35,700 nucleotides of DNA, from contig JAEUUV010000137.1 in assembly GCA_016787285.1 (NCBI GenBank), positions 1 to 35,700 on the forward strand, in the 5' to 3' direction. The notes under the pieces were generated by a model. That model had not been told where the DNA came from. It saw nothing but the letters and a program-made list of their open reading frames with translations, and searched no databases. The stretch comes from Saprospiraceae bacterium (GTDB lineage Bacteria; Bacteroidota; Bacteroidia; Chitinophagales; Saprospiraceae). Positions 5,307 to 18,123 of the stretch are shown in pieces. Numbering within the stretch: the first letter of the stretch is position 1; each line of letters begins with the position of its first letter. The translations under genes were made by a program, and so were the position numbers.

Positions 5307-8300
5307 ATGACCAGAACAATCTTCTTCGCAGCCGTATGCTACATCTGCGGCATACAAATCCTGTCCGCACAATGCCCAACGGGCAATACCGTGCAGGTCA
5401 TCAACAATGCCGGCAACAATGTCAACGGTTCGTTGACCTGGGCGCTCAATTGTCTGAACTCTGTGCCTTCGCTCACGACGGTGACGTTCAATATCCCCGG
5501 CTCGACTCTGATCCAGCCGAGCACCTTGCCGAATATCGGCAAGCCCGGCGCGCTGATTGACGGCAACAGCCAGAATGGTGTGATCGTAGACGGCTCCAAC
5601 CCTGCCGGTGGGCCGGCCAATTGCTTTGTGATTACGGCGCCAAACGTAACCATTCAGGGCCTGACTATCCAAAACTTCATTAGCCCTTCCGGCGGAAATG
5701 CCATTCTGGCAAACGGAAACAACCCTGCTATTTTGGACAACACCATCATGTCCAACCGCACAGGTATCACCACGAACAGTTCCGTGTTGGCATTCAACAT
5801 TAGTGGCAACACCATCGGAGCAAGCGGAACGGGCAACATCACGAACGGCATAAACAATCAGGGCAACCCTGCTGCGGGTGTTATCTCGACGAATGAGATC
5901 GCCCACAACGGCGCGTCCGGTATCACAATTATCGGTGGCACGGTGCTCATAACGGAAAACAGCATTTATTGCAATACAACCTCGGGAATCACCAAGCCGA
6001 CACCTCCTGAATTGCCGGAAATCACCCTCGCTACCACCCAAAGTATTCAGGGTAATGCCCCGGCGAATGCCGAGGTTGAAGTATTCGTTCATTCTACCGC
6101 CGGGTGTGCAGGCGCACCTTGTCAGGGCAAAACCTATGTGGGTACCGCTACTGCATCGGCTTCCGGAATCTGGACGCTCCCCAACCCGGGTATTGTTCCT
6201 GCAGGCAGCTTGGTGACCGCCACGAGCACCATCGGCGGCAATAACACATCAGCGTTTGCTGTCTGCCAATCGGTTACGGATTGTTCAACTTTCATAGCGA
6301 GCATCAACCACACCAATGTCAGTTGCCCCGGAGGGAACAACGGCTCAGCCACGGCCCTGCCTTTCGGAAGCACCATAACGTATCTGTGGAATACCAATGC
6401 CACCACACAAACGATTTCAAACCTCGTGGCGGACACCTACACCGTGACAGTGACCAATCAGGCTACCGGCTGCACCGATAGCGAAAGCGTCACCATCACC
6501 CAACCTTCACCGCTGGGGGTGTCGTTCTCAAATACCAACGTTTCCTGTTTCGGCGGCAACAACGGATCGTCTACCGCCACGGGTAGCGGCGGCACGCCGG
6601 GATACACCTTTGTCTGGAGCAATGGCGAAACCGGACCCACAATCAACAACCTGATCGCAGGCGCTTACATCGTCACCATGACCGATGCCAATGGCTGCTC
6701 TATTGTACAGACAACAACCATTAGTCAACCGGCAACAGCGCTAACAGTCAGCATTTCCAAAACCGATGTCTCCTGCTTCGGCGGAAACGACGGTTCGGCA
6801 ACAGCAACCGCAACCGGCGGAACACCCGGATTCACGTTCCTCTGGAGCAACGGCGCAAACGGCCCGACGGCCAACAACCTCAGCGCCGGCACCTACGTCG
6901 TGACGGCTACCGATGCCAACGCCTGCACCGCCGAGCAAACCGTCGCCGTCGCCGAGCCGCCCCTGCTCGTCGTCACCACCACGGCTACCGACGTCTCCTG
7001 CTTCGGCGGAAACGACGGTGCGGCAACTGCCGTCGCCACCGGCGGAACTCCCGGATTCACCTTCCTCTGGAGCAACGGCACAAACGGCCCGACAGCCAAC
7101 AACCTCGCCGCCGGCACCTACGTCGTGACGGCTACCGACGGCAATGCCTGCACCGCCGAGCAGACCGTCACCGTCGCCGAGCCGCCCCTGCTCGTCGTCA
7201 CCACCACGGCTACCGATGTCTCCTGTTTTGGCGGAAACGACGGTTCGGCAACAGCAACCGCCACCGGCGGAACTCCCGGATTCACCTTCCTGTGGAGCAA
7301 CGGCGCAAACGGCCCCACAGCCAACAACCTCAGCGCCGGTACCTACATCGTGACGGCTACCGATGCCAACGCCTGCACCGCCGAGCAAACCGTCACCGTC
7401 GCCGAGCCGCCCCTGCTCGTCGTCAGTGCCACGGCTAACGATGTCTCCTGCTTCGGCGGAAACGACGGCTCGGCAACTGCCGTCGCCACCGGCGGAACTC
7501 CCGGATTCACCTTCCTCTGGAGCAACGGCGCAAACGGACCGACGGCCAACAACCTCAGCGCCGGTACCTACGTCGTGACGGCTACCGATGCCAACGCCTG
7601 CACCGCCGAGCAAACCGTCACCGTCGCCGAGCCGCCCCTGCTCGTCGTCACCGCCACGGCTACCGATGTCTCCTGCTTCGGCGGCAACGACGGCTCGGCA
7701 ACAGCAACCGCCACCGGTGGAACACCTGGATTCACCTTCCTCTGGAGCAACGGCGCAAACGGACCGACGGCCAACAACCTCAGCGCCGGTACCTACGTCG
7801 TGACGGCTACCGACGGCAATGCCTGCACCGCCGAGCAAACCGTCGCCGTCGCCGAGCCGCCCCTGCTCGTCGTCACCGCCACGGCTACCGACGTGTCTTG
7901 TTTTGGCGGAAACGACGGTTCGGCAACAGCAACCGCAACCGGCGGAACACCCGGATTCACGTTCCTCTGGAGCAACGGCGCAAACGGCCCGACGGCCAAC
8001 AACCTCGCCGCCGGAACCTACATCGTGACGGCTACCGACGGCAATGCCTGCACCGCCGAGCAGACCGTCACCGTCGCAGAGCCGCCCCTGCTCGTCGTCA
8101 CCACCACGGCTACCGACGTCTCCTGCTTCGGCGGCAACGACGGCTCGGCAACTGCCGTCGCCAGTGGCGGAACCCCCGGATTCACCTTCCTCTGGAGCAA
8201 CGGCGCAAACGGACCGACAGCCAACAACCTCAGCACCGGTACCTACGTCGTGACGGCTACCGACGGCAATGCCTGCACCGCCGAGCAGACCGTCACCGTC

Positions 8301-11300
8301 GCCGAGCCGCCCCTGCTCGTCGTCACCACCACGGCTACCGACGTCTCCTGCTTCGGCGGAAACGACGGTTCGGCAACTGCCGTCGCCAGTGGCGGAACCC
8401 CCGGATTCACCTTCCTCTGGAGCAACGGCGCAAACGGACCGACGGCCAACAACCTCAGCGCCGGTACCTACGTCGTGACGGCTACCGATGCCAACGCCTG
8501 CACCGCCGAGCAAACCGTCACCGTCGCAGAGCCGCCCCTGCTCGTCGTCACCGCCACGGCTACCGATGTCTCCTGCTTCGGCGGCAACGACGGCTCGGCA
8601 ACAGCAACCGCCACCGGTGGAACACCTGGATTCACGTTCCTCTGGAGCAACGGCACAAACGGCCCGACAGCCAACAACCTCGCCGCCGGAACCTACATCG
8701 TGACGGCTACCGATGCCAACGCCTGCACCGCCGAGCAAACCGTCACCGTCGCAGAGCCGCCCCTGCTCGTCGTCACCGCCACGGCTACCGATGTCTCCTG
8801 TTTTGGCGGAAACGACGGTTCGGCAACTGCCGTTGCCACCGGCGGAACACCCGGATTCACCTTCCTCTGGAGCAACGGCGCAAACGGACCCGTAGCCGAC
8901 AACCTGCCTGCGGGAACGTACACCGTTACTGCAACAGACGCTGTTGGCTGTACCGCAATACAAACAGCCGCGATTACTCAACCAACCTTGCTCACAGCCA
9001 ATGCAGCGGCAACAAATGTGACCTGTTTTGGTGGCAGCAACGGTGCTGCCTCGGCAACCGGAAGCGGCGGTACCACACCATACACCATCTCGTGGAATAC
9101 CGGCGCAAACGGCCCTTTAATCACGGGCCTGATTGCAGGCATATACACTGCTACTGTCACCGATGGAAACGGTTGCACTGCTGCTCAGTCGGCTACCGTG
9201 AACCAGCCCTCCGCTCTGCAAATCAGCATCATCGCCGCCGACGTGTCCTGCTTTGGCGGCAACGACGGTTCGGCAACCGCAACTGGCAGTGGCGGAATTC
9301 CGGGGTACACTTTCGTTTGGAGCAATGGCGCAAACGGCCCCGTAGCCGACAACCTCAGCGCCGGCGCATTTACAGTAACGGCAACCGATGCCAACGCCTG
9401 TACCACCACACAGACCATTGCCATCACCGAGCCGCCGTTGCTCAACGTGTCGGCAAGCGCCACAGACGAGACCGCCAACAACGCCAATGACGGCACTGCC
9501 ACGGCCATACCTTCCGGGGGTACTCCCGGCTACAATTATATCTGGAGCAATGGAGCCAATACAGCCTCCATCAATAATCTACCACCGGGACTTTACACTG
9601 TCACCGTGCATGACTCGCAGGGGTGTTCTACGTTGGCTATGGTGGTGGTCAATGCCTTTGCGTGCACCGGATTTAGTGTCGGAGTTTCCGGGACAAATGC
9701 CACCTGTAACGGTCTGGCCAACGGAAGCGCCACCGCCAACCCTGTCGGGGGAATGGCGCCACTCAACTATCTCTGGAACACCGCCGCCACCTCGATAACG
9801 ATTAGTAACCTTCCGCCCGGGGTGTACACGGTTACCGCAACAGATGCCTCCAACTGCACCACTGCCGGAACCGCCACCATTTCCCAACCCCCGGTGCTCG
9901 GGGTTTCCATCATCGGAACAAACGCCACCTGCTTCGCCAACAGCAACGGTACGGCTACCGCCACCGGAAGCGGTGGAACGCCGGGCTATACCTTTGCCTG
10001 GAGCAACGGCGCCACAGGTCCCGTAGCCACAGGTTTGCCGGCCGGCGCCTACACGGTCACCGTTTCGGACAATAACGGCTGCACCGCTACGCAGACGGCA
10101 TCCATTTCCCAGCCGCCCGCGCTTTCCGTGAATGTCGGCACAACAAACGCCACCTGCTTCGCCAACAGCAACGGTACGGCTACCGCCACCGGAAGCGGCG
10201 GAACGCCGGGCTATACCTTTGCCTGGAGCAACGGCACCACAGGTTCCGTAGCCACAGGTTTGCCGGCCGGCGCCTACACCGTCACCGCTTCGGACAATAA
10301 CGGCTGCACCGCTACGCAGACGGCATCCATTTCCCAGCCGCCCGCGCTTTCCGTGAATGTCGGCACGACAAACGCCACCTGCTTCGGCAACAGCAACGGT
10401 ACGGCTACCGCCACCGGAAGCGGCGGAACGCCGGGCTACACCTTTGCCTGGAGCAACGGCGCCACAGGTCCCGTAGCCACAGGTTTGCCGGCCGGCGCCT
10501 ACACCGTCACTGTTTCGGACAACAACGGCTGCACTGTAACACAGACGGCTTCCATTTCCCAGCCGTCGCTACTTACCGCGAGCGCAAACGCTACCGGTGT
10601 CACCTGCTCCGGAGACAGCGACGGTACTGCTTCGGCTTCTGGAAACGGCGGCACCACGCCGTACACCATCTTCTGGAGCAACAGCGGAAACGGTCCACTC
10701 ATAACCGGTCTGAGCGCCGGCACATACACGGCTACCGTCACCGACGGAAACGGCTGTACATCTGAAGCCTCGGCTACTGTCGGGTCGCCGCCGCCGCTGA
10801 ATGTGTCGGTCAGCGCTACCGACGAAACGGCCAACAACGCCAACGACGGCACCGCTTCGGCCACGCCCTCGGGTGGTACGCCCGGCTACAATTACGCCTG
10901 GAGCAACGGAGCAAATACCGCCACCATCAGCAACCTGCCCCCGGGCGCCTACACCGTCACCGTACGCGATTCCCGGGGATGCTCGCGCGTGGCTTCTGTG
11001 GTTGTAAACGCATTTGCTTGCGCCGGTCTGAGCGCCGGCATCACCGGACAAAATGCAACCTGCAACGGTCTGGCCAACGGAAGCGTCACGGCCAACCCCG
11101 TCGGCGGCACCGATCCGTACACCTACCTCTGGAGCACAGGCGCCACGTCGAAAACCGTCGGCAGTCTGGCTGCCGGAACCTATACCGTTACCGTCACCGA
11201 TGCCTCGAACTGCACCACCATCGGCGCCACGACCATCGGTCAGCCGCCCGCACTTGCGCTGAGCATCAGCACGACAGATGCCACCGGCGGTCAGAACAAC

Positions 11301-12593
11301 GGTACCGCCACGGCTTTACCCACCGGCGGCACACCTGGCTACCAGTACGCCTGGAGTAATGGTAGCACTACGGCCCAGATCAGCGGGCTGGCGCCGGGCA
11401 CCTACACGGTGGTGGTGCGCGATGCGAACGGCTGCTCCATCACCAGCACCGCCACAGTGGGCAGCAGCGGCACGAGCGGCCCCTGCACATCGCTGCCGCC
11501 TTACGCGCTTTACGCCCCGGCGGAGGTATGCGGAAACGATCCGTTCAACCTGACGGTGGATGACCTGTACCCGGCCCCCGTAGTGCAGTACCGCTGGATT
11601 TTGCCGACCGGCGACACCCTCGTGAGCACGGCGCAGTCCATCACGCTTGTGGCCACTTCGACGGCCTATTCGGGCCAATATTTCGTGATGCGCGACTCGG
11701 CAGGCTGCCGTTCCGTAGCGGTAGGCGGCGCCCCCCTGACGGTGCTCAGTTTGCCGCCGGGAGCAGTATTTGCCGGCAACGACACAACTTCCTGCGCGGC
11801 CGGCGTATCGGTGTTGCGGGCGAAACCATTGACACAAGGTACCGGTAAGTGGGTTTCGCTCACCGGCGCGCGGGTGGATGATGCCAACGCCAACCCGAGT
11901 TCCGCACGTGACCTGAAACCGGGAGCAAATATTTTTGTGTGGCAGGTAAGTCTCGCCGCTTGCGCGCAGGCTGCCGCCGATACGATGGTGTATTTTTGGG
12001 AAACAGCCCCCTCTGCATCCGACGACACGTACACCATCGAACGAGCACAGGATGTGGCGGTCATGGAAGTACTGCTCAACGATGCGCTGGCGGGCATTCA
12101 GGATACCGATGTCACCCAGATCGGCGCCCCTGCTTCCGGCACGCTGGAATACCTGCCGGACACGCGTCGGTTCCGCTACACGGCGGAAGACGGCTACCGG
12201 GGCACTGTACAGTTCCGCTATGTAGTGTGCAACCCAGGTTCGGTGTGCGGTTACGGTTGCGACACGGCTTTGGTCACCATTCAAGTATTGAGCATGCCCT
12301 CGGTTCCCGAGGCGCTGGTCGTAGAAGACCCCGGGGCTAACGGTAAACTGACTATCCGCAACATCAACAGTTTCACCCGTGTGGAAATCAGCATTTTCAA
12401 CCGATGGGGCGACCTGGTTTTTGAAGAAAAAAACTACCGGAACGACAACCCATGGCTCGGTGATTACAACCGCAGCGGCAAGCACCTGCCCAGCGGGGCG
12501 TACTACTATTTTCTGAACGCTTTCGAGGACAACCAGCAGGTGGGCAACACCCAAACGGGTGTGATTCATTTGTTTGACGGGAACGGTAGATAG
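5307..12593 (+). CDS. Giant SprB-repeat adhesin, T9SS type B substrate
   Basis: This is a 2,428-residue surface protein. Residues 1-22 are a signal peptide (ending ILSAQ). Residues about 30-225 resemble a right-handed beta-helix (repeated LDNTIMSNRTG, ISGNTIGASG). From about residue 328 to 2054 there are about 23 SprB-type repeats, each with a core of the form VSCFGGNDGSATATATGG, then FLWSNGANGP, GTYVVTATDANACT and QTVTVAEPP. Ten consecutive copies (about 484-1200) are nearly identical. Residues about 2235-2330 form a cadherin/Ig-like module (LLNDALAG...GTLEYLPD). The end (about 2335-2428, VEISIFNRWGDLVFEEKNY...LPSGAYYYFLNA) is the gliding-motility-associated C-terminal (CHU_C) sorting domain. 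SprB of Flavobacterium johnsoniae is a mobile gliding adhesin; this protein is related in repeat type but not necessarily orthologous. A PorP/SprF gene follows, as expected. Confidence 0.93.
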   Translation: MTRTIFFAAVCYICGIQILSAQCPTGNTVQVINNAGNNVNGSLTWALNCLNSVPSLTTVTFNIPGSTLIQPSTLPNIGKPGALIDGNSQNGVIVDGSNPAGGPANCFVITAPNVTIQGLTIQNFISPSGGNAILANGNNPAILDNTIMSNRTGITTNSSVLAFNISGNTIGASGTGNITNGINNQGNPAAGVISTNEIAHNGASGITIIGGTVLITENSIYCNTTSGITKPTPPELPEITLATTQSIQGNAPANAEVEVFVHSTAGCAGAPCQGKTYVGTATASASGIWTLPNPGIVPAGSLVTATSTIGGNNTSAFAVCQSVTDCSTFIASINHTNVSCPGGNNGSATALPFGSTITYLWNTNATTQTISNLVADTYTVTVTNQATGCTDSESVTITQPSPLGVSFSNTNVSCFGGNNGSSTATGSGGTPGYTFVWSNGETGPTINNLIAGAYIVTMTDANGCSIVQTTTISQPATALTVSISKTDVSCFGGNDGSATATATGGTPGFTFLWSNGANGPTANNLSAGTYVVTATDANACTAEQTVAVAEPPLLVVTTTATDVSCFGGNDGAATAVATGGTPGFTFLWSNGTNGPTANNLAAGTYVVTATDGNACTAEQTVTVAEPPLLVVTTTATDVSCFGGNDGSATATATGGTPGFTFLWSNGANGPTANNLSAGTYIVTATDANACTAEQTVTVAEPPLLVVSATANDVSCFGGNDGSATAVATGGTPGFTFLWSNGANGPTANNLSAGTYVVTATDANACTAEQTVTVAEPPLLVVTATATDVSCFGGNDGSATATATGGTPGFTFLWSNGANGPTANNLSAGTYVVTATDGNACTAEQTVAVAEPPLLVVTATATDVSCFGGNDGSATATATGGTPGFTFLWSNGANGPTANNLAAGTYIVTATDGNACTAEQTVTVAEPPLLVVTTTATDVSCFGGNDGSATAVASGGTPGFTFLWSNGANGPTANNLSTGTYVVTATDGNACTAEQTVTVAEPPLLVVTTTATDVSCFGGNDGSATAVASGGTPGFTFLWSNGANGPTANNLSAGTYVVTATDANACTAEQTVTVAEPPLLVVTATATDVSCFGGNDGSATATATGGTPGFTFLWSNGTNGPTANNLAAGTYIVTATDANACTAEQTVTVAEPPLLVVTATATDVSCFGGNDGSATAVATGGTPGFTFLWSNGANGPVADNLPAGTYTVTATDAVGCTAIQTAAITQPTLLTANAAATNVTCFGGSNGAASATGSGGTTPYTISWNTGANGPLITGLIAGIYTATVTDGNGCTAAQSATVNQPSALQISIIAADVSCFGGNDGSATATGSGGIPGYTFVWSNGANGPVADNLSAGAFTVTATDANACTTTQTIAITEPPLLNVSASATDETANNANDGTATAIPSGGTPGYNYIWSNGANTASINNLPPGLYTVTVHDSQGCSTLAMVVVNAFACTGFSVGVSGTNATCNGLANGSATANPVGGMAPLNYLWNTAATSITISNLPPGVYTVTATDASNCTTAGTATISQPPVLGVSIIGTNATCFANSNGTATATGSGGTPGYTFAWSNGATGPVATGLPAGAYTVTVSDNNGCTATQTASISQPPALSVNVGTTNATCFANSNGTATATGSGGTPGYTFAWSNGTTGSVATGLPAGAYTVTASDNNGCTATQTASISQPPALSVNVGTTNATCFGNSNGTATATGSGGTPGYTFAWSNGATGPVATGLPAGAYTVTVSDNNGCTVTQTASISQPSLLTASANATGVTCSGDSDGTASASGNGGTTPYTIFWSNSGNGPLITGLSAGTYTATVTDGNGCTSEASATVGSPPPLNVSVSATDETANNANDGTASATPSGGTPGYNYAWSNGANTATISNLPPGAYTVTVRDSRGCSRVASVVVNAFACAGLSAGITGQNATCNGLANGSVTANPVGGTDPYTYLWSTGATSKTVGSLAAGTYTVTVTDASNCTTIGATTIGQPPALALSISTTDATGGQNNGTATALPTGGTPGYQYAWSNGSTTAQISGLAPGTYTVVVRDANGCSITSTATVGSSGTSGPCTSLPPYALYAPAEVCGNDPFNLTVDDLYPAPVVQYRWILPTGDTLVSTAQSITLVATSTAYSGQYFVMRDSAGCRSVAVGGAPLTVLSLPPGAVFAGNDTTSCAAGVSVLRAKPLTQGTGKWVSLTGARVDDANANPSSARDLKPGANIFVWQVSLAACAQAAADTMVYFWETAPSASDDTYTIERAQDVAVMEVLLNDALAGIQDTDVTQIGAPASGTLEYLPDTRRFRYTAEDGYRGTVQFRYVVCNPGSVCGYGCDTALVTIQVLSMPSVPEALVVEDPGANGKLTIRNINSFTRVEISIFNRWGDLVFEEKNYRNDNPWLGDYNRSGKHLPSGAYYYFLNAFEDNQQVGNTQTGVIHLFDGNGR
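6758..9000 (+). repeat. Ten near-identical 225-bp tandem repeats in the adhesin gene
   Basis: The phrase around TCCTGCTTCGGCGG recurs every 225 bp at about 6770, 6995, 7220, 7445, 7670, 7895, 8120, 8345, 8570 and 8795. Each unit encodes 75 residues, so copy-number change keeps the frame. Units differ only at a few positions (TATATGG/TAVATGG/TAVASGG, NLSAG/NLAAG, DANA/DGNA), and these variants occur in mixed combinations. Confidence 0.93.
9907..10566 (+). repeat. Second near-identical 225-bp array, three copies
   Basis: Three adjacent SprB units, with cores near 9920, 10145 and 10370, share long identical stretches (NATCFANSNGTATATGSGG). They differ from the first array, indicating a separate amplification within the same gene. 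Confidence 0.85.
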
Positions 12594-12598
12594 TAATT

Positions 12599-12629
12599 GC
12601 TGTCAGACGAACAAGTTCGTGCAGACAGC
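12599..12629 (+). other. Hairpin between the adhesin and PorP genes
   Basis: GCTGTC...GACAGC encloses ACGAAC-AA-GTTCGT, giving a two-part stem of 6+6 bp with a small internal loop. It begins 6 nt after the adhesin stop and has no strong T-run. It could be a processing or attenuation hairpin that lowers downstream expression rather than a full terminator. Confidence 0.55.
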
Positions 12630-12684
12630 CATATACAGCCTGCCACGACAAAATTTCAACCGGTTCATCAACTCAACCTTTACC

Positions 12685-13641
12685 ATGAAAGAAATTGCAC
12701 TCGTTTCCATAGTTATCGCGTTGGCTTCGCCCCTGTTTGCGCAGCAAACACCCTTGTTTTCGGTGTATCGCGACCAATGGGGCGTGCTGAATCCGGCGGC
12801 GGTGTCCAACAACTATTTGCTCAACAAACGCACGATGAGCCTGAGCGGCGCCTGGCACGTGCAGTGGTGGAACATGCCTGTGTCGCCGCGCACGCAGGCG
12901 CTGAGTTGGGAAATGGTGGCCGAGGAACAGAACAGTGTATTCGGGGCGCACATCGTGAACGATCAGACGGGGGCGTTCAGCCAGACAGGTGTTTATGCCC
13001 GCTACGCCTACCGGATCAACATGGGCAACCGCACCGAACAATCGCTGAGCATCGGGCTGAGCGCCGGCGCCGTGCAATACCGCGCCGACCTGACTGAAAT
13101 CGAATTCCCCGACCCCGGCTCCATTCCCGCCGGCAACCTGAACAGCATCCGGCCCGACTTCGGCATGGGTCTTTTTTACCAGTATGCCGACAAGTACTAC
13201 GCCGGCCTGTCGGTGCCGCAAACGCTGGGTTTTCTCGCGCGTTTCGAGCAGGACGAGCAGGCGGTTTCCGTGCGCCGTGTGCCGCATATTTTCGCGGTAG
13301 TGGGCGGTTACTGGAGCACACCGTGGTTAGGCAACTCCACTTCCTTCGTGGAGCCTTCGCTCTGGGTAAAATACGCGCCTGCCGGCCCGATCAACCTGGA
13401 CCTGAACCTGCGGGCACAGATCAGCGAACTCGTGTGGGCGGGCACGGGCGCCAATGTGGGCCTCGGCGTACAGCCCGGCGTAGCACTGCATTTTGAGGCA
13501 GGTTTGTTCTTCGGTGAACAGGTGCAAATGATGGACGGCCAGTTGAAAACCGGTTTTGCGTTCGACCTGCCCGTGACGCAGGGGCTGGGGCGCATATTCG
13601 GTGGTTCGGCAGAGATTGTCGTGGTGTATTCGTGGCGATAA
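12685..13641 (+). CDS. PorP/SprF-family type IX secretion outer-membrane protein
   Basis: The protein has 318 residues from ATG 12685, with signal peptide MKEIALVSIVIALASPLFAQ. The mature N-terminus carries the family phrase PLFSVYRDQWGVLNPAAV followed by NNYLLNK. Alternating beta segments (YRINMGNRTEQSLSIGLSAG, DFGMGLFYQYADKYYAGLSV, PGVALHFEAGLFFG) fit an outer-membrane beta-barrel. PorP/SprF proteins are known to be paired with SprB-like adhesins and to be needed for their export or surface anchoring through T9SS. The gene lies 91 nt downstream of such an adhesin, so that adhesin is its likely client. An upstream in-frame Met at 12574 overlaps the adhesin end and was rejected because the signal peptide starts at 12685. 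The next gene converges with a 3-nt gap. Confidence 0.93.
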   Translation: MKEIALVSIVIALASPLFAQQTPLFSVYRDQWGVLNPAAVSNNYLLNKRTMSLSGAWHVQWWNMPVSPRTQALSWEMVAEEQNSVFGAHIVNDQTGAFSQTGVYARYAYRINMGNRTEQSLSIGLSAGAVQYRADLTEIEFPDPGSIPAGNLNSIRPDFGMGLFYQYADKYYAGLSVPQTLGFLARFEQDEQAVSVRRVPHIFAVVGGYWSTPWLGNSTSFVEPSLWVKYAPAGPINLDLNLRAQISELVWAGTGANVGLGVQPGVALHFEAGLFFGEQVQMMDGQLKTGFAFDLPVTQGLGRIFGGSAEIVVVYSWR

Positions 13642-13644
13642 ACC

Positions 13645-14364
13645 TCAGATTTTTTCCGCAAACCCTACGGCAGCCATCGTCAGGCGGTTCAGTTCGCGCT
13701 GGAGGGCATCGGGGGGCAGCAGGTTAAGGTCGCGCTGTTTCGTCCACTCGGTGTACTGGTTTTGCAGCAAAACGACGGCATTGGTATCGGTTTTTTCGTG
13801 GTCGCGCAGGTAGTCCAGCATGGCACCAAGGCCGCCGTCGGAGGCCAGCAGTTCAAAGGCCTGTATCCGGGGTACGTTGCCGGCGCGTTGGGCAAACTCG
13901 GCTTTTTTCGACACGTACTGCTGCATGATGTTCGCATTCGGACGGAACAACGGCTCTTTCCGGAAATACATCACCGTGAACGCCAGCAACAAACCCGCCT
14001 GAAACGGCAACAGCCAGGTGTATGATTTGGTCAGATACGCTTCGATGCTCATGTTCGCTACGGCCATCGGCAGGGCAAAAAACGTCAGGGCAATGAGCAG
14101 CAGATAGGCCAGGGTGCCGGCGTACACCGCCCGAAACGTGGCCCGCATCAGCACTTTCGAGGGGTTTTTGTTGAGTAATACTGCCGCAAAGAGCAACAAC
14201 ATACCCGGTAGCAACTGGATGAACAGCCAACTCCATGCCTGCATTTCCACCAGTTCAAACTTGCCGTTCAGCGTTTGGACAAAAGCCAGCAAAACCAGGG
14301 CAACGGCAAAACCAAGCCACAGCCACAGCAGTTTTTTTCGGGTATCGGCGAGCAGGATCAGCAT
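13645..14364 (-). CDS. Four-helix membrane protein with C-terminal EAD11-like domain
   Basis: The protein has 239 residues from ATG 14364. An open frame extends further upstream, but only through 51-bp repeats and the neighbouring gene. Hydrophobic helices lie at about 13-31, 45-64, 80-100 and 116-134. After a short basic linker, residues about 165-239 read RIQAFELLASDGGLGAMLDY, then LLQNQYTEWTKQRDLNLL and LQRELNRLTMAAVGF. This is the pattern of effector-associated domain 11 as I know it: an acidic first helix with a small-residue turn, L..QY......R, then a final E.NR....... helix. EADs are described as homotypic adaptors joining sensors to effectors in bacterial conflict systems. The EAD11-pseudoCHAT gene one gene upstream carries the same domain at its N-terminus. 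The membrane part could be a pore-type effector or an anchor; neither is shown. Confidence 0.68.
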   Translation of the reverse strand: MLILLADTRKKLLWLWLGFAVALVLLAFVQTLNGKFELVEMQAWSWLFIQLLPGMLLLFAAVLLNKNPSKVLMRATFRAVYAGTLAYLLLIALTFFALPMAVANMSIEAYLTKSYTWLLPFQAGLLLAFTVMYFRKEPLFRPNANIMQQYVSKKAEFAQRAGNVPRIQAFELLASDGGLGAMLDYLRDHEKTDTNAVVLLQNQYTEWTKQRDLNLLPPDALQRELNRLTMAAVGFAEKI

Positions 14365-14368
14365 AGTA

Positions 14369-14552
14369 CAGTTTTGAGTTTTGAGTTTTGAGTTTTGAGT
14401 TTTGCTTGCCTGCCGAAGCCTTGGCGAAGGCGGGAGTTTTGAGTTTTGAGTTTTGCTTGCCTGCCGAAGCCTTGGCGAAGGCGGGAGTTTTGAGTTTTGA
14501 GTTTTGCTTGCCTGCCGAAGCCTTGGCGAAGGCGGGAGTTTTGAGTTTTGAG
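14369..14552. repeat. GTTTTGA heptamers and three 51-bp direct repeats
   Basis: A run of about five GTTTTGA units (from 14369) leads into three copies of a 51-bp unit starting at 14404, 14455 and 14506. Each unit contains GCTTGCCTGCCGAAGCC and a CCTTGGCGAAGG palindrome, and ends in more GTTTTGA units. The third copy is cut short. The array fills the gap between two genes. There are no unique spacers, so it is not a CRISPR array. The heptamer recurs at 19768 and 35255. Confidence 0.9.
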
Positions 14553-14557
14553 TGGGT

Positions 14558-15790
14558 TTAGAATCCGAGGGCGGGGGCGAGGCCTGATTTGCGGAGGTGG
14601 GTTTTGGCGCTGAACCGGGGCGAGGGGCATTTTTGCACGGGTTTCCGATTGCTTTCGGGCACTTCAAATTCGTACACGAGGGCGGTTACGTCGTAAGCCG
14701 AGGTGAATTTCATGGCGGCAAGGCTGTTGGGCAGGCGGTTGTATCCCTGGTTGAGCCAGGCAGCGGCCTGTTCTTTCGATACCCGTTTCTCGCTGCCGCC
14801 GAAGGGTGCGTCGGTCACTACAAACACAAACATCCGGAAATAGCCTTTTTGCGGCACCACAAGCGCCTTCAGGTAGTCGAGCACGCCGGTAAAACTGCCG
14901 ATGGCCGGATAGTCGAGCCAGCGGGTGCGATCATTTCGCACCGAACCGTCGGCGCCGTTGTATTGCTCCAGTTGCGTGACGGCGGCAAAACCGTTGGGCA
15001 CGGAAAAGAAACTGCGCTGCGTGAACCCTTTGGCCTCAAGTGCAGTGCCCAGCCGGCCTTCCACATCGCCGAGCACCTTGCAGTTTTTAAAAACGGTTTT
15101 CGGCAAAATAGTGCGGGTATTGCAGGCCGGCGGCGGCCAGGGAAAGGCCGGCAATTGTGGCGCCTCGCCGACCTCAATAGATTTCATATCTTTATCATCG
15201 AATGGCAGGTTGCTGCTCACCTCCGTGGTGCGTTCTCCCCGGACATATCCTACGTCCACCGCAGCCCGGCGAAGATCAGGCGGAATGCCGGACGCGGAGG
15301 CTGATTTTGTCAAAAATGCCTCCGTCTCGGCCTTGGGGAAACCGAACAGGTACAGAATAAAGCCCATGAATTCGTCGGCCTCGATCTCTTCGGTTTGCCG
15401 GTTTGCCGGGTCGAAGGTATGCCCGATGACATGGTGCCCGATTTCGTGCGCCAGCACGGCAACTTTTTCCAGATCGCTGCTTTTTTCCAGAAAATCGAGG
15501 CTGTACAGCAGGTACCGCTTGCCGTTGTCGAACACAGCGGCGGCGTTTTCCACATTGGTTTGCACCCACTCGAAGTTGATCTCCGAGTTGCCGTGCGCTG
15601 CGATCCGGCGAATCAGCGAATCGGCTTTTGCCTCTTCAGGAAAGCGGTACAGTTCCTCGTCTATGGCGGTGCCGGAAAAGTTGCAGTGCCGGTCGGTCGT
15701 GATTTCCAGCAGCGTTTGAGCAGACAAGGCGGGACATGCTGCCGTGAGCAACAGCAGTCCAAGAAATCGACAGGTTGGAATGTTGAGCAT
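14558..15790 (-). CDS. Secreted M48-like zinc metalloprotease
   Basis: The protein has 410 residues from ATG 15790; 17 upstream in-frame residues were rejected because the signal peptide starts at MLNIPTCRFLGLLLLTAACP and ends near LSAQ. The zinc site is HEIGHH (His115, Glu116, His119), and the third ligand is likely Glu135 in EEIEADEF, the ExxAD motif of M48 peptidases. The catalytic part spans about 30-165. Residues about 225-400 form an unrecognised C-terminal domain (VFVVTDAPFGG, YDVTALVYEFEVP). A TACTTTTG -7 box lies 24 nt upstream of the start. The gene sits between the two EAD11-bearing genes, and the EAD11-pseudoCHAT gene precedes it on the same strand across a 49-bp inverted repeat. 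A role as a processing protease or as an effector is possible. The substrate is unknown. Confidence 0.8.
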   Translation of the reverse strand: MLNIPTCRFLGLLLLTAACPALSAQTLLEITTDRHCNFSGTAIDEELYRFPEEAKADSLIRRIAAHGNSEINFEWVQTNVENAAAVFDNGKRYLLYSLDFLEKSSDLEKVAVLAHEIGHHVIGHTFDPANRQTEEIEADEFMGFILYLFGFPKAETEAFLTKSASASGIPPDLRRAAVDVGYVRGERTTEVSSNLPFDDKDMKSIEVGEAPQLPAFPWPPPACNTRTILPKTVFKNCKVLGDVEGRLGTALEAKGFTQRSFFSVPNGFAAVTQLEQYNGADGSVRNDRTRWLDYPAIGSFTGVLDYLKALVVPQKGYFRMFVFVVTDAPFGGSEKRVSKEQAAAWLNQGYNRLPNSLAAMKFTSAYDVTALVYEFEVPESNRKPVQKCPSPRFSAKTHLRKSGLAPALGF

Positions 15791-15814
15791 GGTCGGAGGT
15801 CGGTTTAGCACCGG

Positions 15815-15822
15815 CAAAAGTA
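15815..15822 (-). promoter_or_regulatory. Candidate -7 box for the M48-like gene, TACTTTTG
   Basis: On the minus strand TACTTTTG matches TAnnTTTG and ends 24 nt before the ATG at 15790, giving a short leader. No matching -33 TTTG is seen. Confidence 0.42.
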
Positions 15823-15911
15823 CAGTGGGTTTTGGCTGCACTACCGGACATTTTCAAAATCGCCGCACAGACACGCAGACGCGGGATTTTTAAGTATCCA
15901 GACATTTAATT

Positions 15912-16045
15912 GACAAATTCTGCGTGACGTCTGTGCCTTAAGTCTGTGTACGTCTGTGCGAAACTTATTGGCTTCGGCATTGTGCTTAGACTATACCGCA
16001 CAGACGTACACAGACTTAAGGCACAGACGTCACGCAGAATTTGTC
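15912..16045. repeat. Perfect 49-bp inverted repeat with 36-bp spacer
   Basis: Arm 15912-15960 is the exact reverse complement of 15997-16045. The arms contain internal GTCTGTG-type repeats (ACGTCTGTGC, AGTCTGTGTA). The element lies downstream of the EAD11-pseudoCHAT gene and upstream of the M48-like gene. A degenerate related tract (CGCACAGACACGCAGACGCG) lies at about 15865-15885. The stem is far longer than a normal terminator and no open frame is inside. Confidence 0.95.
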
Positions 16046-16068
16046 TCAAATAATTTATACCACCTACC

Positions 16069-16989
16069 TTATTTGCCTTTTTTAGCGGGTTGCTTTTCCT
16101 GCTTTTGCTGCGGGTAAAAATCGTCCGGGGTTGTCGTGTCTTCGGCGCAAAGACCGTTCTGGTACAGAAAATACTTTTGCGATTCCGGACTTAGTCCCAG
16201 TAGGTCGCGGCCCATCTGGAAGGCTTTTTCATAGTTTTTATCCAATGCCAGAGCGGCGTAAAAACCGCTGGAAAAACTGATTGCCTCCTCGTCGCTCACC
16301 ATGCCCCGGATACCGACGGCATACGGAATGACGCGGGAAATCACCTTGGAGAACAGGTTGGAGGTGCCGGTATTGAAAAACACGCACTCGACCGAATCCT
16401 TGAGCATCTTGAACGCCGGCGCTAAAAACTCGTACGGGATCATGTACGACGTGTGCTCGTGCTTTTGCAGCAGGTACACACCCGCCTCTTCCGAAAACCC
16501 GGACATATGGATGATATTTGGTTTCTCCCGGTAGATGGCCTCAAAAAAGGTATCGAGCGTCACGTCGAATTCCTCGGTGATGCTGAATCGGTCGCGGTGG
16601 TTTTTGAAAATTTTGCGGATTTCGAGGTATTCCTTTTCCAATTGGAGGTGCGAGGGGGCGTCCACGGGGTTGGCGGCCAGAAACAGGAGTTTGGTTTTCG
16701 GGCCTTCGTGCTCGGAGTCGCTCGGCATGGCCCCGCCCGACAGCAGTCCTTCCGACTGCATTTGATCAAGCAGGCTCAGGAGGCCGTAGTTTACTTTGGT
16801 GAGTGTGGACATGTGCGAGGAGGCATCTGTCAGGCCCATCGCATAGGCGAAATTGGCCTGCGCATACTGCCCGCTCAGTTGCATCACGCCGTTTTTGATA
16901 TCGCTGTTCCCCGATGCCAGACGCGACATCTGGCTGATGGCTTCCTGGGTTTTTCCTTCCCCGATCAGGCCTTTGATTGTGTTGAGCAT
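16069..16989 (-). CDS. EAD11 domain fused to a catalytically dead CHAT domain
   Basis: The protein has 306 residues from ATG 16989; the 49 residues upstream in frame are not hydrophobic or conserved in appearance. Residues 1-77 match EAD11 (IKGLIGEGKTQEAISQM, VMQLSGQYAQ, LTKVNYGLLSLLDQM). Residues about 98-265 match a CHAT caspase-like domain: KTKLLFLAANPVDAP, LQLEKEYLEIRKIF, PNIIHMSGF, VECVFFNTGTSN, VIPYAVGIRGMVSDEEAI and FSSGFYAALA. In active CHAT proteins the middle motifs read roughly HFSGHG and LNACYS. Here the catalytic His is Phe165 and the catalytic Cys is Gly208. A basic Lys/Gln tail ends the protein. It is probably cytoplasmic, with no signal peptide. It is the second EAD11 protein of the locus. 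A likely non-enzymatic scaffold or sensor role is inference. A near-match -7 box (TACCTTGG) lies at 17025-17032. Confidence 0.85.
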   Translation of the reverse strand: MLNTIKGLIGEGKTQEAISQMSRLASGNSDIKNGVMQLSGQYAQANFAYAMGLTDASSHMSTLTKVNYGLLSLLDQMQSEGLLSGGAMPSDSEHEGPKTKLLFLAANPVDAPSHLQLEKEYLEIRKIFKNHRDRFSITEEFDVTLDTFFEAIYREKPNIIHMSGFSEEAGVYLLQKHEHTSYMIPYEFLAPAFKMLKDSVECVFFNTGTSNLFSKVISRVIPYAVGIRGMVSDEEAISFSSGFYAALALDKNYEKAFQMGRDLLGLSPESQKYFLYQNGLCAEDTTTPDDFYPQQKQEKQPAKKGK

Positions 16990-17151: not shown

Positions 17152-18123
17152 ATGCGCTATTGGTTTATCTGGACTTTACTCTTGCCCGGCTCCGTGGTTG
17201 CCCAAAAGGTATCCGACATCGAAACCTCCGACATAACCCGCTTCTGGATGGCATATGACAAACTTCCCGAGGCAAAAACCAATCAGGACAGCGTGCGAAT
17301 CATTCAGGAGGAGTACCTCAACAAGGCATCGGCAGGTTTTCGGGAATTCATTCGCCTGCGAAACTTTACGGCACAGGAATACGTGGCGTTGTTGGGTGCA
17401 CACCCCAGGTTTTGGGTTTCCACCAGACCTCTGACGGAAAAAATTGTGCAAAGGGTCCCGGAAATCAATCAGGTATTGGATTCGATGCAAAAGATACTGC
17501 CCGACTTCGAAAGGCCCGGCGTTTGTTTTGCCATCGGTTGTATGCGTACAGGAGGCACCACCACGGAGCGACTCATCCTGATCGGCTCGGAAATTGCGGC
17601 GGCAGACAGTACCACGGACAAATCTGAGGTAAATGCGTGGCTGAAGAGTGTGCTGGGGCAAACCGGCGATATTGTTTCCATGGTGGCGCACGAAGCCGTG
17701 CATACCCGGCAAAAAGGATTTCCATTATTTGAAATCTTTTCGCTCGCCAAACACAAGCGCCTGAATTTGCTGAATACGGCCATCGTGGAAGGAAGCGCAG
17801 ATTTTATTACAGCCCAACTACTTGGACACCATATCAATGCCCGGTTGCACACCTATGGAAGCGCCAACCACTGCCTGCTTTTGCGCGAGTTTTTCAAAGA
17901 CTACGAGGCAAAGCCCTTCGATGTATCCAGGTGGCTTTACAACGGAAACAATTCAAAAGACAGGCCTGCCGATCTGGGATATTATATTGGGTATCAAATC
18001 AGCGAGGCATTTTACAATCAGGCTTCCGACAAAAAAAGGGCGTTGAAGACGTTGCTTCGACGCGGGAAATACAAAAAAGTGTTCCGAAAAAGCAAAATAG
18101 ACGCGAGCAATTGCGTGGATTAA
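17152..18123 (+). CDS. Exported DUF2268-like zinc protease
   Basis: The protein has 323 residues from ATG 17152, with a short signal peptide MRYWFIWTLLLPGSVVAQ. The metal-binding motif is MVAHEAVHTRQ (His180, Glu181, His184), followed by VEGSADF with Glu213 as the likely third ligand. Later the phrase DLGYYIGYQISEAFYNQ (275-291) is typical of DUF2268 predicted Zn-dependent proteases. The protein is probably periplasmic or surface located. It is transcribed divergently from the EAD11-pseudoCHAT gene across 162 bp. A CACCTTTG sequence around 17069-17076 is a one-mismatch -7 candidate. The upstream in-frame Met at 17110 was rejected because the signal peptide starts at 17152. Whether it belongs to the EAD11 locus is unknown. 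Confidence 0.75.
   Translation: MRYWFIWTLLLPGSVVAQKVSDIETSDITRFWMAYDKLPEAKTNQDSVRIIQEEYLNKASAGFREFIRLRNFTAQEYVALLGAHPRFWVSTRPLTEKIVQRVPEINQVLDSMQKILPDFERPGVCFAIGCMRTGGTTTERLILIGSEIAAADSTTDKSEVNAWLKSVLGQTGDIVSMVAHEAVHTRQKGFPLFEIFSLAKHKRLNLLNTAIVEGSADFITAQLLGHHINARLHTYGSANHCLLLREFFKDYEAKPFDVSRWLYNGNNSKDRPADLGYYIGYQISEAFYNQASDKKRALKTLLRRGKYKKVFRKSKIDASNCVD

What the first reader, a model, noticed from the sequence alone, without database searches (positions are those of the whole stretch)
13645..16989. Candidate two-part EAD11 signalling system linking a membrane protein to a dead CHAT protein
Two genes separated by one share an EAD11-like domain: C-terminal in a four-helix membrane protein (residues about 165-239) and N-terminal in a CHAT-like protein (1-77). 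EADs are described in bacterial conflict systems as homotypic connectors between sensors and effectors. The arrangement suggests that the cytoplasmic CHAT-like protein docks on the membrane protein, which could be the effector. An exported M48-like protease lies between them. I know of no characterised system with this composition.
Basis: partly seen in the sequence, partly recalled or inferred. Interest (0 to 1): 0.82.

Follow-up and report, generated by a model that had tools for sequence, protein, structure and literature searches.

The report
Periplasm-to-EAD11 membrane relay module
The two EAD11 domains are real, but the membrane protein's true partner is the exported protease-like gene beside it, and together they look like a relay that connects the cell envelope to a large internal network of suspected immune effectors.

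Summary
Pfam EAD11 scores above its cut-off on both proteins (31 and 44.3 bits, cut-off 26). The CHAT-like domain has lost both catalytic residues. The interpretation needs correcting. The genome has 24 EAD11 matches over the cut-off, so two lying about 3 kb apart is not unusual (P about 0.29). The dead-CHAT gene is not linked to the membrane protein elsewhere: in the stretches fetched, a second EAD11 gene lies near only 1 of 14 loci of the EAD11-bearing membrane protein, this window. The constant unit is gene A, a secreted, mostly M48-like protein with a conserved C-terminal domain X, followed at once by gene B, the four-helix membrane protein: adjacent in 15 of 15 loci. In one genome B carries an intact CHAT domain fused in place of EAD11. 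Genomes with B carry more EAD11 matches (mean 23.5, n 11, against 10.7, n 31). Best reading: A-B relays from periplasm to cytosol, with a CHAT protease or the EAD11 network (SIR2, TIR, kinase, iSTAND and others) as output. The neighbouring dead CHAT is at most one client.

The parts
13645..14364 (-). Gene B: 239-aa protein with four TM helices (about residues 12-134) and a cytosolic C-terminal EAD11
   Evidence: orthologues
13654..13866 (-). EAD11 domain of gene B (residues 167-237)
   Evidence: Pfam PF19964, 31 bits, cut-off 26; EAD11 listed (E up to 0.1) in 10 of 10 B proteins of alignment A1
14370..14576 (.). Tandem repeats (7-bp and 51-bp units) between A and B, running into the 3' end of A; the A-B gap is 193 bp here, -4 to 261 bp in the 14 other loci
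14558..15790 (-). Gene A: 410-aa secreted protein, M48-like N-terminal domain plus conserved C-terminal domain X
   Evidence: immediately 5' of B, same strand, in 15 of 15 loci
14561..15154 (-). Domain X, the constant secreted domain (no Pfam family found; no credible solved relative by sequence)
   Evidence: Alignment A3; searches
15434..15448 (-). HEIGH zinc motif of gene A
15905..16052 (.). Long palindrome (RNA fold of 15881-16070: -104 kcal/mol), a dispersed element giving 62 matches in the genome, most places counted on both strands; separates the CHAT-like gene from gene A
16069..16989 (-). EAD11 plus degenerate CHAT-like protein (306 aa); possible trans client of the EAD11 network, not a conserved partner
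16756..16983 (-). EAD11 domain of the CHAT-like protein (residues 3-78)
   Evidence: Pfam PF19964, 44.3 bits
16204..16707 (-). CHAT-like region (about residues 95-262), catalytic His and Cys replaced by F and G

Best explanation
Genes A and B form a two-gene transmembrane relay, often with a second M48-like gene, C, alongside. A is exported; its domain X and, in most members, an M48-like protease act in the periplasm on envelope or substrate cues. B spans the inner membrane four times and holds its output domain in the cytosol. In 14 of the 15 loci the output is EAD11, an adaptor expected to bind other EAD11 proteins and so recruit or cluster the cell's EAD11-tagged effectors (SIR2-like, TIR, trypsin, kinase, iSTAND and others here). 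In one distant relative the output is an intact CHAT protease domain fused directly. The EAD11/dead-CHAT protein beside it in this window is one possible client, acting if at all as a scaffold, decoy or brake. Shown: domain content, gene order, conservation, zinc motif in most A proteins, catalytic loss in the CHAT. Inferred: topology, periplasmic sensing, EAD11-EAD11 binding, recruitment, and a role in defence or cell death.
For: A-B adjacency, same strand, gap -4 to 261 bp, in 15 of 15 B loci: 12 in 11 of 42 genus genomes, L100, G143 and G385; gene order. The loci were found with B alone, so adjacency was not selected for. EAD11 listed in 10 of 10 B proteins of A1 (E up to 0.1) and in L104 (44.4 bits). 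The 4TM of L105 was found with a profile that lacked it, over the TM part only (E 8.6e-9), and its C-terminus is Pfam CHAT (4.4e-11) with both catalytic motifs intact; its neighbour matches gene A's X region (27% over 202 aa, E 1e-17). C-in topology by charge sum in 14 of 14 B proteins. EAD11 matches per genome: 11 with B mean 23.5, 31 without mean 10.7, p 1.8e-5; without counting B's own 3e-5; same among genomes of 5 Mb or more (11 and 18) 0.001. EAD11 fusions in this genome include SIR2_2 x4, TIR x2, trypsin, kinase, iSTAND, EAD7, TPR x2. HExxH in 12 of 15 A proteins.
Against: No binding, localisation or phenotype data. The EAD11 count correlation is not corrected for kinship, and G030, G032 and G033 have 23, 26 and 31 EAD11 matches without B. 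The zinc motif is HAISH in L076 and not found in L104 and L105, so proteolysis cannot be essential to the relay. A full-length A also occurs without B at 5 loci (L138-L142). No B locus outside the window has a second EAD11 gene in the stretch fetched, so the clients are unproven. The direct CHAT fusion is a single locus. The module is narrow: domain X in 6 of 395 class genomes, the window's own included. PADLOC gives nothing for B or the CHAT-like protein and, for A, peptidase_U41 (2.8e-6, about 50 residues at the zinc motif) and RmrA (0.0036).
Confidence: 0.55

Rival explanations
1. One reading: a private pair in which the cytosolic dead-CHAT protein docks by EAD11 on the membrane protein, which is the (pore-like) effector.
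For: Both carry EAD11 and lie on one strand with 1.7 kb between the genes; a 4TM-CHAT fusion exists in L105; the dead CHAT is under purifying selection (dN 0.25, dS 1.62).
Against: A second EAD11 gene nearby is unique to this window (1 of 14); of 37 genus genomes B is in 9, the dead-CHAT orthologue in 3, both only in G000; EAD11s unlike; palindrome between; B's conserved neighbour is A.
Confidence: 0.1
2. A-B(-C) is envelope quality control or housekeeping proteolysis (BepA-like), with EAD11 only tuning it; not a defence relay.
For: The only solved chains matched by gene A's profile at E up to 0.1 are five BepA sequences, weakly (best 0.03); of three C-type proteins put to Pfam one pairs M48 with TPR and one with TSP_3 and an FGE-type domain.
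Against: The output domains of B, EAD11 or CHAT, are those of conflict proteins; patchy presence (11 of 42 genus genomes); link with EAD11 number.
Confidence: 0.25
3. EAD11 in this lineage is a general docking domain, so neither the pair nor the A-B module is specific to immunity.
For: EAD11 is found in 40 of 42 genus genomes, up to 31 matches each, fused to many different domains.
Against: iSTAND, EAD7, SIR2 and TIR fusions and an nSTAND1/AbiGi cluster look conflict-type (the roles of SIR2, TIR and AbiGi in defence are recalled).
Confidence: 0.1

Closest known systems
EAD-coupled conflict networks (Kaur et al. 2020, PMC7159879; abstract and passages read)
   Same: Small terminal non-enzymatic domain shared by many proteins of one genome; one copy on a core component; the same kind of effector (CHAT) directly fused in another lineage
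   Different: Core here is a secreted X protein plus a 4TM protein, not MoxR-vWA, GTPase-GAP1 or NucA-trypsin; EAD11 does not occur in that main text
EACC1-caspase membrane two-gene system (same paper, passages)
   Same: Two genes, membrane-associated component, caspase-like protease link
   Different: EACC1 has one TM helix with alpha+beta ends and a caspase in the second gene; here four TM helices, C-terminal EAD11 or CHAT, and a secreted partner gene
CHAT proteases: solved chain 8tl0 (a SAVED-CHAT by recall) and TPR-CHAT of Craspase (PMC9729208, passages)
   Same: The CHAT region aligns to 8tl0; TPR-CHAT did not come up in these searches and is compared by family name and dyad only
   Different: Window CHAT lacks the His-Cys dyad; no SAVED, TPR or CRISPR context was seen at it
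BepA / M48 periplasmic proteases
   Same: Secreted HExxH protein of M48 type; one gene C examined has M48 plus TPR
   Different: Weak similarity (E 0.03); domain X and the 4TM partner are absent from BepA (recalled)

Membership tests
EAD11 (PF19964) | Pfam score over curated cut-off | tested here: met
   31 and 44.3 bits against 26
EAD-coupled system | Domain at protein terminus, several copies per genome on varied effector or signalling domains | tested here: met
   24 over cut-off; fusions
EAD-coupled system | EADs of adjacent genes are closest to each other | tested here: not met
   B and dead CHAT: 14% identity, rank 8 of 23 and 17 of 23
EAD-coupled system | Same effector fused directly to the core in other genomes | tested here: met
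   4TM-CHAT in L105, one locus
EAD-coupled system | Homotypic EAD binding | not testable with these tools
CHAT protease | Pfam CHAT match | tested here: not met
   No hit for the window protein; relatives L040, L041, L105 hit
CHAT protease | His-Cys dyad | tested here: not met
   F and G in the window protein; lost in 3 of 3 orthologues
M48 peptidase | HExxH with downstream Glu | tested here: met
   HEIGHH...EADEF
M48 peptidase | Pfam score over cut-off | tested here: not met
   19.7 against 20.3 bits
EACC1 two-gene system | Single-TM EACC1 plus caspase gene | tested here: not met
   Four TM helices; description from passages of PMC7159879

The most novel reading that the evidence does not exclude
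A-B is a previously undescribed class of bacterial transmembrane immune receptor: a secreted X-domain sensor or protease, a four-helix transducer, and an exchangeable cytosolic output that is either an adaptor (EAD11, recruiting caspase-like, SIR2 and TIR effectors) or a caspase-like CHAT protease itself. That would be a bacterial counterpart in layout of animal death receptors.
Probability: 0.35. Interest if true: 0.85.

Novelty: new variant of a known kind. Interest (0 to 1): 0.6.

Why it matters
Kaur et al. already inferred that some EAD-linked systems work near the membrane or face the cell wall (passages). A conserved pair of a secreted protein and a four-helix protein with an EAD11 or CHAT output would give such a network a defined input from the periplasm. 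It would make a prediction testable: that envelope events such as phage entry can trigger EAD-tagged effectors. It also points to a secreted domain (X) without a Pfam family.

Tried and rejected
One search used a wrongly guessed accession (PF19959 is EAD4); it found nothing and was replaced by PF19964. Rejected: that nearness of the two EAD11 genes shows a pair. Rejected: that B co-occurs with EAD11-CHAT proteins in general: of 37 genus genomes, B in 9, any EAD11-CHAT in 8 (G004 a fragment, G023 two fragments on separate contigs), both in 3, Fisher p 0.37. The G010 match to B (E 8.4e-4, partial, one stop) was dropped; one search finds no B in G010. L096, L098, L099 and L101-L103 were taken to be contigs already held (equal contig lengths) and not counted twice; L097 equals L175. 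A guess that the iSTAND-EAD11 gene would sit beside MoxR and vWA genes was looked at only as the starts of a greedy ORF list, with no family search; that list even shows a wrong-strand ORF over the iSTAND gene, so it settles nothing. Promoter and terminator scans gave no more than shuffles. Profile searches of solved structures with A1 and A3 gave nothing useful. E-values of L105 and L104 are circular, since both were in those profiles; searches are the independent evidence. In one search twelve minus-strand loci were translated on the wrong strand; corrected. A script stopped on an error and was replaced.
Full report
What was checked. Pfam EAD11 scores 31 bits on B (residues 167-237) and 44.3 bits on the CHAT-like protein (residues 3-78), cut-off 26. 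B has four hydrophobic segments, as do 14 of 14 B proteins tested (of 15 known). Summed K and R are higher on the N-terminus, middle loop and C-terminal side than on the two other loops in all 14, although single loops tie in L071, L074, L075 and L100. So EAD11 should be cytosolic. This rests on hydropathy and charge, not on a trained predictor.

The CHAT-like protein. It has no Pfam CHAT hit, but it aligns to the solved CHAT protein 8tl0 (E 0.0035; the profile A5 that includes it gives 2e-27). It also aligns to L040 and L105, which do hit Pfam CHAT. Where CHAT proteases carry a His-Cys dyad (passages of PMC9729208), the window protein has F and G, and its two orthologues L038 and L039 have Y and G. 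Other EAD11-CHAT proteins vary: L040 keeps both, L042 keeps only the Cys. The window gene is still under purifying selection (dN 0.25, dS 1.62 against L038; dS is high). It looks like a pseudoenzyme, not a decaying gene.

Is the pair more than chance? The genome carries 25 EAD11 matches at E 0.01, 24 over the cut-off (one of these, L024, scores 24.5 bits, under the cut-off, when its protein is scanned). Placing 24 points at random in 5.56 Mb gives at least one neighbouring pair within 3.3 kb in 0.29 of 5000 trials. The two EAD11s are 14% identical, at the 28th percentile of the 276 pairs in the genome; by score the CHAT's EAD11 ranks 8th of 23 for B's, and B's ranks 17th of 23 for the CHAT's. 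A palindrome of about 148 bp that recurs across the genome (62 matches, most places counted on both strands) lies between the CHAT-like gene and A.

What is conserved. B was sought with its sequence in 60 relatives, with a profile in 395 class genomes, in the genome-contig collection by one conserved peptide pattern, and with the 4TM part alone in 42 genus genomes and 13 of another family. Fifteen B loci resulted: 12 in 11 of 42 genus genomes, L100 (a contig not recognised among the held genomes), G143 (L104) and G385 (L105). In 15 of 15 a gene with domain X lies immediately 5' of B on the same strand, with a gap of -4 to 261 bp (gaps depend on the start codons chosen). In 11 of 15 a second M48-like gene, C, sits in the same run: directly after B in nine, before A in two. 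In L071 it lies about 2 kb off on the other strand. In the window, L104 and L105 none was seen. The window genome keeps a C orthologue on another contig (L143, 68% identical to that of L066).

Domain X. A's C-terminal 200 residues (alignment A3, 17 sequences) are the constant part. The N-terminal part carries HExxH in 12 of the 15 A proteins: HEIGH in 11 and HEVGH in L067, which that script's pattern missed (seen). It reads HAISH in L076. L105 has HEAT repeats instead, and L104 no recognised domain. Domain X also occurs without B: five full-length A loci in the genus (L138-L142) and four loci in another family (L155-L158; L158 has what look like MORN repeats, by eye). Domain X was found in 6 of 395 class genomes, the window's own included. 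In nine A proteins only metallopeptidase families appeared at E up to 0.1, and L104 and L155 matched no Pfam family. No solved chain matched X credibly.

The fusion. In G385 the 4TM protein (L105 8218-9303) was found by the profile A1, built without it, over model positions 11-148 only, E 8.6e-9. Its C-terminal part is Pfam CHAT, 43.2 bits against 24, with intact catalytic motifs. It overlaps by 4 bp the end of a gene for a HEAT-repeat protein (signal-peptide-like start, by eye) whose C-terminus matches gene A's X region, 27% over 202 residues, E 1e-17. So the same membrane domain takes either EAD11 or a CHAT domain as its cytosolic end. This matches the published EAD principle, that effectors recruited through an EAD in one genome are fused directly in another (passages of PMC7159879, and PMC8195603). 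It is one locus. L041 (G046) is another protein with N-terminal TM-like helices (by eye) and a CHAT domain, but no A or B was found in that genome.

The dead CHAT is not B's conserved partner. In 37 genus genomes searched with both proteins, B occurs in 9, the dead-CHAT orthologue in 3 (G000, G007, G009), both only in G000. G007 and G009 also lack A. With a home-made EAD11 profile, a second EAD11 gene in the fetched stretch was found at 1 of 14 EAD11-type B loci, the window (the other stretches are 7 to 18 kb, some cut by contig ends).

The network. EAD11 occurs in 40 of 42 genus genomes, up to 31 matches. B-bearing genomes have 17-31 (mean 23.5, n 11), others 0-31 (mean 10.7, n 31); Mann-Whitney one-sided p 1.8e-5. 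After removing B's own domain it is 3.0e-5, and of these, among genomes of 5 Mb or more (11 and 18; rounded sizes), 0.001. G030, G032 and G033, without B, have 23, 26 and 31, so B is not required for a large repertoire. Kinship was not corrected for. Of the 24 EAD11 proteins over the cut-off in the window's genome, Pfam adds SIR2_2 to four, TIR to two, trypsin with a sub-threshold TIR match to one, a protein kinase, iSTAND, EAD7, an FGE-type domain, HATPase_c_4, DUF4384 and CarboxypepD_reg to one each, and TPR to two. Six show EAD11 alone, and the last two are the window's B and dead CHAT. One contig holds SIR2-EAD11, an nSTAND1 gene, two EAD11-TIR genes and an AbiGi gene together.

How it most likely works. 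A is exported and B carries the signal or the recruitment platform across the inner membrane; B's EAD11 gathers EAD11-tagged effectors at the membrane, or its CHAT cuts a target directly. What A senses is unknown. A weak resemblance of its profile to the periplasmic protease BepA (E 0.03) makes envelope damage or entry of foreign material a reasonable guess, no more. The dead CHAT could be a scaffold or competitor for the same platform. All of this paragraph is inference.

Novelty. Searches of the held papers for EAD11, effector-associated domains with CHAT, metallopeptidase and periplasmic terms, and related words listed no paper that, from titles and abstract starts, describes this module. 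Of the papers found I read only the abstract and passages of PMC7159879 and passages of PMC8195603 and PMC9729208; most subscription papers and all preprints are outside that library. The principle (EAD coupling) is known; the secreted X plus 4TM core with EAD11 or CHAT output appears new.

Noticed in passing
G000 and genus genomes: EAD11 is hugely expanded: 24 over cut-off here, up to 31 matches in a relative, above the 22 EAD1 proteins called a record in PMC7159879 (passage)
   Followed up: partly
L107 (G000:C81) 7318-13719: Cluster of SIR2-EAD11, nSTAND1-FGE, EAD11-TIR, AbiGi and EAD11-TIR genes, looks like a defence island
   Followed up: partly
window 15905-16052: Dispersed palindrome with many copies in the genome; the nine best other matches outside this spot are 81-88% alike
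   Followed up: partly
window 14370-14576: Tandem repeats (AGTTTTG and a 51-bp unit) between A and B, reaching into A's 3' end
   Followed up: no
L158 7573-9189; L105 4190-8221: Domain X fused to MORN-like (by eye) or HEAT repeats instead of M48, so X looks like a mobile secreted domain
   Followed up: partly
window 17152-18123: Divergent neighbour of the CHAT-like gene matches GldB_lipo and the DUF2268 protease family
   Followed up: no
window 5307-13641: 2428-aa repeat-rich protein followed by a PorP/SprF gene, as in type IX secretion pairs (pairing recalled)
   Followed up: no
L041 (G046): A protein with N-terminal TM-like helices and an intact CHAT domain, with no A or B found in that genome
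   Followed up: partly
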